In this document: positions 16,079-18,509 of the stretch, piece by piece
Numbering within the stretch: position 1 is the stretch's first letter
Layout: the number at the start of each line of letters is the position of its first letter
NCBI GenBank assembly: GCA_046760505.1
Contig: JBHIEG010000029.1
Location: 1 to 19,161, forward strand
Origin: CAYFZR01 sp046760505 [NCBI: Candidatus Hydrothermarchaeota archaeon]
GTDB taxonomy: Archaea > CAYFZR01
Reading direction: 5' to 3'
DNA: 19,161 nucleotides
Translations under genes and position numbers: made by a program
Notes under the pieces: model-generated
The model's input: only the letters and a program-made list of their open reading frames with translations
What the model was told of the DNA's origin: nothing
The model's database searches: none

Positions 16079-17317
16079 GTGAAGTCAAGCGAAACTCCAA
16101 ATTCGAAGGGTAAAGACCCGGATGATTTTTCAAGATATCTACTTAATAGAGTAAAACAACTTGAAACTGCATATAGCCAAGCAAAGGAAGACCACAGAAG
16201 ACTAGAGAATGAGAAAAAATATATCGAAAGCGAAAGAATGCGCATGGAAAGGGAGGTTCGCAGACTTAGGAGCGAGTTAGAAAGGCTCAAAAGCCTTCCT
16301 CTGGTTGTGGCAAATGTTATCGATGTGTTAAACGATGACAAAGCCATCGTAAAAAGCTCAACAGGTCCCAATTTTGTTGTAAATATTTCTCAATTCGTAG
16401 ACAAAAAGAAACTTGTCCCTGGGGCACGTGTCGCTCTCAACCAACAATCATACGCCATAATTGGAACATTACCAACTGAGAAAGATCCATTCGTTAGAGG
16501 AATGGAGATAGAAGAGCGACCACCCACAAGATACGAGGACATAGGTGGATTAAAAGCTCAGATAAGAGAAATAAGAGAAACTGTCGAGCTACCCCTAAAA
16601 AGACCAGATTTATTTGAAAAAATTGGTATTGAACCGCCTAAGGGCGTGATGCTATACGGTCCGCCAGGCACAGGTAAAACTCTCCTTGCAAGGGCAGTAG
16701 CACATGAAACTGATGCCACGTTCATCAAAATTATTGGTTCGGAATTGGTCCAAAAGTATATTGGAGAAGGCGCAAGGATGGTAAGAGAAATTATACAACT
16801 TGCAAGGGAAAAGGCTCCAAGTATAATATTCATAGACGAACTAGACGCAATAGGTGCAAAAAGACTTGAGAGCGCAACAAGTGGAGATAGGGAGGTTCAA
16901 AGGACGCTGATGCAGTTGCTCGCTGAGATGGACGGATTTGATCCTAGGGGAAATGTAAGGTTTGTTGGAGCAACAAACAGACCTGACATCTTAGATCCTG
17001 CTCTTCTTAGACCCGGTAGGTTTGACAGACTTATAGAGGTCCCGATGCCAAACTACGAGGCGAGGGTGGAGATATTTAAGATACACACAAAAAACATGAA
17101 TGCCGAAAACATCGACATAGAAAACCTTGCAAAAATCACCGACGGGGCTACGGGTGCAGATATAAAGGTCATATGCACGGAAGCAGGCATGTTCGCGATA
17201 AGAGATGAGAGAGATACCGTCTATATGGATGACTTCCACAAGGCCATTGAGAAAGTCTTAAAATTAAATGGTAGAATTGGAGAGGTAAAAGAATCCGTAG
17301 GAATAATGTTCGGATGA
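16079..17317 (+). CDS. pan: Proteasome-activating nucleotidase (PAN)
   Basis: 412-residue hexameric AAA+ ATPase that unfolds substrates for the 20S proteasome. Domains in order: N-terminal coiled coil (about 18-72, heptad-like [11 protein letters not shown]...[13 protein letters not shown]), OB domain (about 74-135), AAA+ module with Walker A GPPGTGKT (194-201), Walker [10 protein letters not shown] (249-257), [20 protein letters not shown], and the C-terminal helical lid. GTG is chosen because GGAGG precedes it at 8 nt; an in-frame TTG at 16064 lies just upstream of that site and is rejected. The C-terminus is ...VGIMFG. PAN normally ends in a hydrophobic-Tyr-X motif that docks into the 20S alpha ring; here the position is Met-Phe-Gly, a conservative variant. 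The proteasome subunits are not in the window. Confidence 0.95.
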
Positions 17318-17327
17318 ATGCTCCTCC

Positions 17328-17377
17328 ATGATGAAATTTCTAAACTGATACCAGATGATGAATGATGGGCGAACTGA
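17328..17377 (+). ncRNA. C/D box sRNA (2'-O-methylation guide)
   Basis: All four boxes are present in order, with archaeal spacing: C box ATGATGA (17328-17334), a 10-nt D' guide, D' box CTGA (17345-17348), a 6-nt spacer, C' box ATGATGA (17355-17361), a 12-nt D guide ATGATGGGCGAA (17362-17373), and D box CTGA (17374-17377). The RNA would associate with L7Ae, Nop5 and fibrillarin. The D guide is complementary to TTCGCCCATCAT. Archaeal 23S rRNA, as I recall it, reads UUCGCCCAUUAA just after the A-loop (H92), giving 11 pairs including one G-U. The fifth-nucleotide rule places methylation on the C equivalent to E. coli 2558. The D' guide target is unclear. It begins 10 nt after the PAN stop and may be processed from the PAN transcript. 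The terminal stem is weak, as in many archaeal guides. The boxes are seen; the target is inferred. Confidence 0.75.
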
Positions 17378-17395
17378 TAACGCCATTTTTCGCCC
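17367..17395 (+). terminator. Inverted repeat and T-run after PAN/sRNA
   Basis: GGGCGAA (17367-17373) and TTCGCCC (17389-17395) are perfect 7-nt inverse complements around a 15-nt loop, with a T5 run (17386-17390) and an AT-rich tail. It could help end PAN transcription. One arm is the D guide of the sRNA, so the pairing may instead be fortuitous or regulatory. Confidence 0.35.
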
Positions 17396-17401
17396 TATTT
17401 A

Positions 17402-17674
17402 TTATCTGTGGTTATATTGTCTATTTCTTCTGTTGAGGTAGTATATTCTTTTGCTGATTCCTGCTTTCTTCCCGAACTTTTCGATATTCCTTCTTACAGT
17501 AGAGTAGTCTAGCGGATAGCCTTTGTTCTTGGTTCCGATGCCGACCCAAAGAGATGCATCCGGGTTTTCCTTTAGAGAGTGATTGTCCATCCAAGTGGCT
17601 AGGTAGGGAGAGTGTGAATTGTACCATGGTGCGGGAGACAAGACAGCTCCCTCAGTTCTAAATCCCTTTTTCAT
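17402..17674 (-). pseudogene. Tyrosine recombinase (XerC/D-like integrase) fragment
   Basis: A 90-codon remnant. Residues about 23-79 (YLATWMDNHSLKENPDASLWVGIGTKNK...YSTVRRNIEKFGKKAGISKRIY) match the middle of archaeal phage-integrase-type recombinases, which continue with Y-P-H-L-F-R-H and the catalytic HxxR. Here the sequence breaks off right after RIY: the expected HxxR, second His and nucleophile Tyr are missing, and the first 22 codons do not look like the family. I read this as a decayed piece of an integrated element. No partner ends, direct repeats or att site were recognised. The start ATG may be accidental. Confidence 0.65.
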
Positions 17675-17819: not shown

Positions 17820-18509
17820 TCAAACCAGCTTCCCGAGCGCGTGTATTACATCGGGCTTGTGACACTTCGTACACTCTGGTATCGTGATCTCGATAGTTCC
17901 GTGGCAATTCTCGCAAGTGGGCCCTTTCTTTCCTTCTTTTTCTAATCTCTTTTTTGCATGAATATAGTGAACTGTTCCATGACACTTATAGCATAATTCG
18001 TTGCCTTTAGCTATTTCGTGATGTATTCTCAGCAGGTTGTCTGCGTGACATGCTTGACAAATTATCTTGTCCTCCTCTACGGTAGGTTTAACTATTTCAG
18101 GAGGACTTTGATGGCATATTGCACAAGCTCCACCATGTATCTTTGCAACATCTGCTCCATGACATCTAGCACATATGACTTCTCCCACCTTAACATGCAA
18201 TTCCGTTACATCACCATGGCATGTTGTGCAGTTCTCTCTTGCTGGTCTTTCGTGGATTTCGTGTATGGGTGGAGAGTGACATTTTACACATTCAGGTATC
18301 TCTACGCTAGGCAAAAAGCCATGACAATCTGAGCAGCCTATCCATACATCTGCATGAATGCTGTGAGCCACATCGTGACAACCATAACAAAAGGACTTCG
18401 TATAATTCTTCTTTTCAGGATTCTGCGTCTTCTCCTCTGAGATGGTGGGTATTGATACTGTAACGAGAAGGATCACTACAAAAACTAAACCTATGGACAA
18501 TCTCTTCAT
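17820..18509 (-). CDS. Secreted decaheme c-type cytochrome
   Basis: 229 residues with an N-terminal signal sequence (KR then a hydrophobic stretch 5-20, VFVVILLVTVSIP) and ten CxxCH heme-binding motifs: 41, 59, 74, 94, 113, 129, 151, 173, 199 and 213 (first Cys of each). Extra histidines recur in IH or LH pairs between motifs (for example 49/52, 83/86, 105, 125, 163/164, 181/184, 223), enough for bis-His ligation of most hemes. No C-terminal anchor is present, so it is probably exported and soluble or complex-bound outside the membrane, passing electrons. ATG 18509 has GAGG at 5-nt spacing. The gene is alone; no cytochrome maturation or reductase genes are nearby. It is divergent from a small winged-helix protein gene. 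Confidence 0.93.
   Translation of the reverse strand: MKRLSIGLVFVVILLVTVSIPTISEEKTQNPEKKNYTKSFCYGCHDVAHSIHADVWIGCSDCHGFLPSVEIPECVKCHSPPIHEIHERPARENCTTCHGDVTELHVKVGEVICARCHGADVAKIHGGACAICHQSPPEIVKPTVEEDKIICQACHADNLLRIHHEIAKGNELCYKCHGTVHYIHAKKRLEKEGKKGPTCENCHGTIEITIPECTKCHKPDVIHALGKLV

What the first reader, a model, noticed from the sequence alone, without database searches (positions are those of the whole stretch)
17328..17377. C/D box guide sRNA immediately downstream of PAN, predicted to target the 23S rRNA A-loop flank
Seen: ATGATGA - 10 nt - CTGA - 6 nt - ATGATGA - 12 nt - CTGA, a full canonical archaeal C/D layout. The D guide ATGATGGGCGAA would pair with 11 consecutive positions (one G-U) of UUCGCCCAUUAA, which I remember as the archaeal 23S sequence right after the A-loop. 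By the D-box-plus-5 rule, the modified base is the C equivalent to E. coli 2558, close to the peptidyl transferase A site. sRNA genes of this kind are usually missed by annotation pipelines.
Basis: partly seen in the sequence, partly recalled or inferred. Interest (0 to 1): 0.75.

Follow-up and report, generated by a model that had tools for sequence, protein, structure and literature searches.

The report
Archaeal guide RNA for ribosome methylation
Right after a proteasome gene in an unnamed archaeon lies what looks like a small guide RNA gene, of a well-known kind, that probably tells a methylating enzyme which letter to mark in the ribosome's amino-acid-accepting loop; the same guide sits at the same spot in methane-producing archaea.

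Summary
Window 17328-17377 holds a complete box C / D' / C' / D layout, starting 11 nt after the PAN stop codon. It is the only strict layout in the window, and none appeared in 2000 shuffles. It is very probably a real archaeal C/D box sRNA gene. The same D guide, at the same place after PAN, occurs in Methanobacteriota: 29 of 30 loci chosen by PAN protein alone carry it, and the 30th is cut by a contig end. The same D guide recurs in 13 of 29 Altiarchaeota genomes, away from PAN in the 10 loci examined. A sequence model built without the window finds the element at E 1.3e-8; the next window hit has E 0.17. The D guide pairs 11 nt (one G-U) with UUCGCCCAUUAA of 23S helix 92, confirmed in real 23S genes, so the +5 rule predicts a methyl on C2558 (E. 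coli numbering). In Altiarchaeota the partner D' guide aims at U2552 of the same loop; in a Methanothermobacter-like genome it aims at C34 of pre-tRNA-Met. The window's D' guide differs and has no convincing target. The window's own 23S, and any RNA data, could not be examined. New member of a known kind.

The parts
17328..17377 (+). C/D box sRNA gene, box C to box D (50 nt)
   Evidence: layout read; model R1 built without the window, 29.3 bits, E 1.3e-8; 0 such layouts in 2000 shuffles
17328..17334 (+). box C (ATGATGA)
   Evidence: TGATGA identical in all 22 homologues aligned (required by the search patterns)
17335..17344 (+). D' guide (AATTTCTAAA), no convincing target
   Evidence: no run in sense 23S or tRNA that stands out; differs from the Methanobacteriota and Altiarchaeota D' guides
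17345..17348 (+). box D' (CTGA)
   Evidence: CTGA in all 22 rows
17355..17361 (+). box C' (ATGATGA)
   Evidence: TGATGA in all 22 rows
17362..17373 (+). D guide (ATGATGGGCGAA), pairs with 23S UUCGCCCAUUAA; fifth nt before box D faces C2558 (E. coli numbering)
   Evidence: shared with Methanobacteriota and Altiarchaeota sRNAs
17374..17377 (+). box D (CTGA)
   Evidence: part of every search pattern
16079..17317 (+). PAN, proteasome-activating nucleotidase, the upstream gene (probable co-transcription, not shown)
   Evidence: Pfam AAA, AAA_lid_3, Prot_ATP_ID_OB_C
17367..17395 (+). possible hairpin GGGCGAA (17367-17373) / TTCGCCC (17389-17395): the D guide paired with downstream target-like sequence; possible 3' end or terminator
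   Evidence: 17362-17400: z -3.07, 3 of 200 shuffles fold as well; the larger stretch 17320-17400: z -1.70, 15 of 200; a chosen region, so weak evidence

Best explanation
The element is an archaeal C/D box guide sRNA gene, probably transcribed as the tail of the PAN mRNA and trimmed to about 50-60 nt. By the known mechanism of the class, box C/D and box C'/D' form k-turns bound by L7Ae, with Nop5 and fibrillarin. The D guide pairs with helix 92 of 23S rRNA (UUCGCCCAUUA), and fibrillarin methylates the 2'-O of the C facing the fifth guide nucleotide, C2558 in E. coli numbering, in the stem that closes the A-loop. Shown here: the layout, its rarity, conservation of guide and boxes, synteny with PAN, and complementarity to real archaeal 23S. 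Inferred: transcription, processing, protein binding, methylation, and that this organism's own 23S has the target. The D' guide probably serves another RNA or nothing.
For: Strict layout 1 observed, 0 in 2000 shuffles. PAN-selected Methanobacteriota loci: 29 of 30 carry a C/D layout with this D guide 12-262 nt after the PAN stop, and the 30th is cut off by a contig end inside the element. Box C', box D' and the letters ATGAT before GGGCGA were not required by that pattern, yet appear in 86 of the 87 listed places. Altiarchaeota: 13 of 29 genomes. Model without the window: E 1.3e-8. Guide and target strings occur together in 7 of 29 Altiarchaeota genomes, and in the five of these set side by side the pairing holds. 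The guide letter next to box D varies (A/G/T/C) while the ten letters facing the target do not; up to nine of these ten were in search or extraction patterns, but the 29 PAN-selected loci keep GATGGGCGA without that selection. In Altiarchaeota the second guide of the same RNA aims at U2552 of the same loop. Homologues have a terminal stem with double-sided changes at all 6 pairs, 91.7% of cells paired against 55.8% in shuffles.
Against: No genome, 23S or RNA data for the window organism. The guide-target match alone is not decisive: shuffled guides do as well in 5-12 of 300 trials on five Halobacteriota 23S genes (one partial) and in 1 of 300 on a partial Methanobacteriota 23S. The window copy lacks the terminal stem. 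Its D guide can be locked in a hairpin with downstream sequence. No Rfam family reaches its gathering score. The D' guide has no clear target. No C/D homologue was seen in 392 sampled Halobacteriota genomes (5 and 4 genomes with pattern hits, none with the layout; those patterns allowed only A, or A/G, beside box D) or in 171 sampled Thermoproteota genomes, and none after 30 Halobacteriota PAN genes (one of the 30, L090, has only 19 nt downstream). In Altiarchaeota 6 genomes have the sRNA without the target string found and 8 the reverse; incomplete genomes may explain this.
Confidence: 0.86

Rival explanations
1. The stretch is the 3' end of the PAN transcript: a hairpin GGGCGAA/TTCGCCC followed by a T-rich tail acts as a terminator, and the C/D boxes are coincidental.
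For: Fold of 17362-17400 has z -3.07, 3 of 200 shuffles fold as well; a run of five T at 17386-17390. The terminator scan lists no + strand site here, but it allows loops of 3-8 nt only and could not have found this 15-nt loop, so it does not count against.
Against: The downstream half of the hairpin (TTCGCC or TCGCCC within 40 nt of box D) is in 0 of 71 distinct homologous elements held, which keep boxes and guide. A full strict layout is not expected by chance. The larger stretch folds with z -1.70 only. Both can be true: the hairpin may end the precursor.
Confidence: 0.06
2. A real C/D sRNA whose D guide binds helix 92 mainly as a folding chaperone, with little or no methylation at C2558.
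For: The literature proposes chaperone roles for archaeal C/D sRNAs (abstract of PMC4644070). C2558 is in a stem.
Against: The +5 base pair is Watson-Crick (G-C) in the targets examined, as productive guides need.
Confidence: 0.2
3. A decaying or orphan copy: the D' guide has no target, the terminal stem is gone, and the RNA may no longer be made.
For: No stem in the flanks; D' guide unmatched; next to a short ORF without a Pfam match.
Against: All four boxes and the D guide are intact although the D' guide and spacer differ from the homologues. A reviewed study found flanks dispensable for maturation (PMC7994747 section 8).
Confidence: 0.1

Closest known systems
Archaeal C/D box sRNAs in general (PMC4644070, PMC7994747)
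   Same: Boxes RUGAUGA/CUGA twice, two guides of 10-12 nt, about 50 nt, target by the +5 rule, placed just after an ORF.
   Different: Nothing that sets it apart as a class; expression untested.
Methanobacteriota PAN-linked C/D sRNA (L001, L003-L006, L116-L145 except L125, L164-L193 here)
   Same: Same D guide, box C' and D, same place after PAN.
   Different: D' guide ACCCTATGAGCT, which fits intron-containing pre-tRNA-Met at C34 in G549, against AATTTCTAAA in the window; a covarying terminal stem that the window lacks.
Altiarchaeota C/D sRNA (L284-L293 here)
   Same: Same D guide core TGATGGGCGA.
   Different: D' guide GCGAACAACC, which fits the A-loop with U2552 at +5; no window protein, PAN included, matched in 10 loci with up to 1.5 kb flanks.
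sR49-type guides of Cm34 in tRNA-Met and sR25 of P. abyssi for U2552 (passages of PMC2584109)
   Same: These known guides have the targets seen for the D' guides of the two homologue groups.
   Different: I did not compare their sequences; neither target is that of the window's D guide.
Rfam sR3 (RF01133), sR2, sR1, sR18, sR5
   Same: Weak box-driven matches over 17324-17380, E 0.0005 to 0.035.
   Different: All far below the gathering scores (for example 22.4 against 41 bits).

Membership tests
Archaeal C/D box sRNA | Boxes C (RUGAUGA) and D (CUGA) at the ends, C' and D' inside | tested here: met
Archaeal C/D box sRNA | Two guides of about 9-12 nt between C-D' and C'-D, total about 50-60 nt | tested here: met
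   10 and 12 nt, 50 nt in all
Archaeal C/D box sRNA | Guide complementary to rRNA or tRNA with a Watson-Crick pair at +5 | tested here: inconclusive
   met for the D guide on 23S of other archaea; the window's own rRNA is not held; no convincing target for the D' guide
Archaeal C/D box sRNA | Conservation of boxes and guide in other species | tested here: met
   not seen in the sampled Halobacteriota and Thermoproteota
Archaeal C/D box sRNA | Expressed as a discrete small RNA bound by L7Ae, Nop5 and fibrillarin | not testable with these tools
   no RNA data
Archaeal C/D box sRNA | Terminal stem next to boxes C and D (common, not required) | tested here: not met
   no stem over 1 bp in the flanks scanned
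PAN-linked sRNA of Methanobacteriota | D guide ATGATGGGCGA and location after PAN | tested here: met
PAN-linked sRNA of Methanobacteriota | D' guide ACCCTATGAGCT for pre-tRNA-Met C34 | tested here: not met
   window D' guide is AATTTCTAAA
Rfam archaeal C/D families (sR1, sR2, sR3, sR18, sR5) | Score above the gathering cut-off | tested here: not met

The most novel reading that the evidence does not exclude
One ancient guide module (box C', the A-loop guide for C2558, box D) has been kept in at least three deep archaeal lineages while the partner guide in the same RNA was exchanged: U2552 of the same loop in Altiarchaeota, C34 of pre-tRNA-Met in Methanobacteriota, and an unknown target here. 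Its link to the PAN gene would then be older than the split between Methanobacteriota and the window's lineage, or the sRNA moved between them.
Probability: 0.5. Interest if true: 0.5.

Novelty: new member of a known kind. Interest (0 to 1): 0.37.

Why it matters
The A-loop holds the incoming aminoacyl-tRNA during peptide bond formation and is a methylation hotspot in all domains (PMC4644070). A text search of that paper's main text finds U2552 and C2556 but no '2558'. A guide for C2558 kept over a large evolutionary distance, with a fixed neighbour in two lineages and a replaceable second guide, is a clean case for asking which rRNA methylations are truly maintained in archaea, and how guides are swapped. 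It can be tested in cultivable Methanobacteriales.

Tried and rejected
Searched for the organism: no genome is held. The best PAN identity is 69% in 392 sampled Halobacteriota and 68% in 151 Methanobacteriota. The PAN tree puts the window alone on a branch at the base of the Methanobacteriota plus Thorarchaeota side (support 95/80, midpoint root), and the tool warns of long branches. IleRS has 43-55% identity in the best stretch to 17 of 20 genomes searched, among them Halobacteriota, Thermoplasmata and Altiarchaeales, 36% to a Bathyarchaeota genome, and 26-27% (other stretches to 44%) to one Bathyarchaeota and one Methanobrevibacter genome. I therefore do not name the lineage.

Tested and dropped: a chance layout; an annotated Rfam family; a convincing target for the window's D' guide. 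Candidates such as CUUAGAAGCA, met in three 23S loci, pair over 7 nt with one G-U only. An exact search for the Methanobacteriota D' target in 10 genomes found 7 places in 7 genomes, which by their positions are the sRNA genes themselves; the full scan of G549 with pairing rules then found the intron-containing pre-tRNA-Met. That scan also lists further equally or nearly as good places for the D' guide elsewhere in G549 (27 in all, two of 11 Watson-Crick pairs besides the sRNA itself, one of them the tRNA). The first alignment mis-took two loci (L164, L172, wrong strand) and was not used. A plasmid blast gave one short match at E 0.3.

Selection effects: the invariance of GATGGGCGA is partly by construction, since search and extraction patterns required it; the unbiased set is the PAN-selected loci. 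From the 53 distinct elements listed I aligned 22 and 28, chosen to drop near-identical rows. The hit L125 (second place in G426) has no C/D layout and is counted as chance. Asgard, Thermoplasmatota and other phyla were not searched with the pattern.

Literature: searches. The pair Altiarchaeota + box sRNA gave 0 papers; Methanobacteriales + box sRNA gave 3, seen as search listings only. The C2558 search (five terms together) gave one paper on mitochondrial disease, seen as listing only. Seen of papers: PMC4644070 (abstract and outline, section 4 part 1 of 3, sections 9, 10, 16, passages), PMC7994747 (abstract and outline, section 4 part 1 of 2, section 8, passages), PMC2584109 (passages). Supplements, where full target lists lie, could not be opened, so 'not in print' is not claimed. 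PMC1370243 (A-loop modification mapping) is not held.

Full report
Observation. The sequence reads exactly as described: ATGATGA-10-CTGA-6-ATGATGA-12-CTGA at 17328-17377, starting 11 nt after the stop of PAN (ORF end 17317; domains). It lies between PAN and a short ORF on the other strand without a Pfam match (17402-17674). With a strict pattern (RTGATGA, 8-14, CTGA, 3-12, RTGATGA, 8-14, CTGA) the window holds one match on both strands and 2000 dinucleotide shuffles hold none; with a looser pattern the shuffles give 0.06 per window. The model described below also finds only that place there.

Conservation. In five named Methanobrevibacter PAN loci (L001, L003-L006) the same element lies 20-38 nt after the PAN stop; the other 23 of the 28 named PAN loci L001-L028 lack it. 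A pattern asking only for TGATGA, 15-45 nt, GGGCGARCTGA hit 85 of 151 Methanobacteriota genomes; the reversed pattern hit 0. Of the 87 places listed, 86 show box D', box C' and ATGAT before GGGCGA, none of which the pattern required. Of the 30 loci fetched, 29 have PAN upstream on the same strand, about 20-270 nt away. The least biased test is the 30 loci fetched by PAN protein alone: 29 have the C/D layout with GATGGGCGANCTGA 12-262 nt after the stop, and in the last, L187, the contig ends inside the element.

Beyond Methanobacteriota, 13 of 29 Altiarchaeota genomes carry a C/D sRNA with the same D guide; in 10 such loci no window protein, PAN included, had a match. Thermoproteota: 0 of 171 sampled. 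Halobacteriota: 5 of 392 and 4 of 392 sampled genomes with pattern hits, none with the layout, and none after 30 PAN genes there; those two patterns allowed only A, or A/G, beside box D. A sequence-only model of 22 homologues without the window finds 17329-17377 with 29.3 bits, E 1.3e-8; the next window hit has 6.5 bits.

RNA nature of the family. In 28 homologues the flanks form a 6-pair stem outside boxes C and D: 91.7% of cells paired against 55.8% in shuffles, all 6 pairs with double-sided changes, 0 of 500 shuffles reaching the covariation score. Two lineages contribute much of this, so cells are not independent events; the count of pairs with double changes alone is not unusual (108 of 500 shuffles reach it). 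The window copy has no such stem. Reviewed experiments say flanks are dispensable (PMC7994747 section 8).

Target of the D guide. 5'-AUGAUGGGCGAA-3' pairs with UUCGCCCAUUAA over 11 nt, one G-U, in the 23S of one Methanobacteriota genome, G527. In Altiarchaeota that 23S string is found in 15 of 29 genomes, 7 of which also have the sRNA; in the five of these that I set side by side the pairing holds over 11-12 nt including G-U. In five Halobacteriota 23S genes the third C is U, which costs one more G-U; in a sixth, L151, the string was not found. Numbering: PMC4644070 calls U2552 the first and C2556 the fifth nucleotide of the A-loop, so the C facing the fifth guide nucleotide is C2558, in the 3' strand of the loop's stem. 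The match alone would be modest evidence: shuffled guides score as well in 5-12 of 300 trials on the five Halobacteriota genes and 1 of 300 on the partial Methanobacteriota gene. Conservation of guide and boxes together carries the weight. The nucleotide beside box D varies (A, G, T or C) in the homologues, while the ten facing the target do not; part of that invariance is built into the patterns, but the PAN-selected loci show it without that.

Partner guides. Altiarchaeota D' guides (GCGAACAACC and variants) pair with the A-loop GGUUGUUCGC over 9-10 nt and place U2552 at +5 in the five genomes examined, so there one RNA addresses U2552 and C2558. The Methanobacteriota D' guide ACCCTATGAGCT pairs over 11 Watson-Crick pairs with intron-containing pre-tRNA-Met(CAU) of G549 (GGCUCAUAGGGU, running from the anticodon loop into the likely intron), placing C34 at +5. 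It is by far the best match among the 32 tRNAs found there (the next has 7 pairs), though one further place in that genome pairs as well. This agrees with published exonic guides of Cm34 in tRNA-Met that pair with part of the intron, and with 18 such candidates found in archaea (PMC2584109 passages); whether these include the Methanobacteriota RNA I could not see. The window's D' guide AATTTCTAAA resembles neither and has no convincing partner among the 23S genes and tRNAs held. A guide without a known rRNA target is normal: about a third of sRNAs (163 of 489) in PMC4644070 lacked an rRNA match.

Mechanism. Very likely the RNA is cut from the tail of the PAN transcript; the review says most archaeal C/D sRNA genes need no promoter of their own and many overlap or adjoin an ORF. 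k-turns, L7Ae, Nop5 and fibrillarin, and 2'-O-methylation of C2558 follow from the known biology of the class and were not tested. One feature is peculiar to the window: TTCGCCC at 17389-17395 can pair with GGGCGAA of the D guide (z -3.07 for 17362-17400, -1.70 for 17320-17400); 0 of 71 distinct homologous elements held have TTCGCC or TCGCCC within 40 nt of box D. It may be a 3' end signal or hold the guide shut before trimming; the region was chosen by me, so it is only a lead.

Whose genome. No genome is held. PAN is at most 69% identical to anything found, and the tree puts it on a lone branch at the base of the Methanobacteriota plus Thorarchaeota side. IleRS resembles Halobacteriota, Thermoplasmata and Altiarchaeales proteins (43-55%) more than that of the one Methanobrevibacter genome searched (27% in the best stretch, up to 36% in others). 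The shared PAN-sRNA pair could be inherited and lost elsewhere, or transferred; I cannot decide.

Verdict. The finding is right and the reading is supported: a real-looking member of a well-known RNA class, with a guide for 23S C2558 that proves to be shared by Methanobacteriota and Altiarchaeota.

Noticed in passing
L284-L293 (Altiarchaeota), and the A-loop loci L294, L296, L298, L299, L302: One sRNA whose two guides overlap on the same A-loop, predicted for U2552 (D') and C2558 (D); the two duplexes share target letters, so they should not form in full at once on one 23S molecule.
   Followed up: partly
G549 (L201-L282 joined), 166003-166111 complement: Apparently intron-containing tRNA-Met(CAU) whose anticodon-loop and following letters fit the D' guide of the PAN-linked sRNA over 11 Watson-Crick pairs.
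   Followed up: partly
L081-L110, first 70 nt after the PAN stop: A C-rich motif like CGGAACCTCCACC follows PAN in Halobacteriota relatives: C[TC]TCCA in 17 of 29 loci against 1 of 29 in the next 70 nt (the 30th locus is too short). The window has CTCCTCCA just before box C. Function unknown.
   Followed up: partly
window 17367-17395: D guide core GGGCGAA is followed 15 nt later by its complement TTCGCCC, not seen after 71 homologous elements.
   Followed up: partly
window 17820-18509, minus strand: Multiheme cytochrome c-like protein with ten CXXCH motifs (Pfam Cytochrom_c3_2), convergent with PAN.
   Followed up: no
window 17402-17674, minus strand: 90-aa ORF directly after the sRNA, no Pfam match; by eye it resembles a piece of a site-specific recombinase.
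   Followed up: no
Methanobacteriota genomes such as G463, G465, G459, G450: A second, more distant PAN-like gene (53-57% identity to the window's PAN) beside the canonical one in the genome.
   Followed up: no
G424, G448, G476, G549: No rRNA match in G424, G448 and G476, and 72 kb of N blocks in G549, which limits target checks.
   Followed up: no
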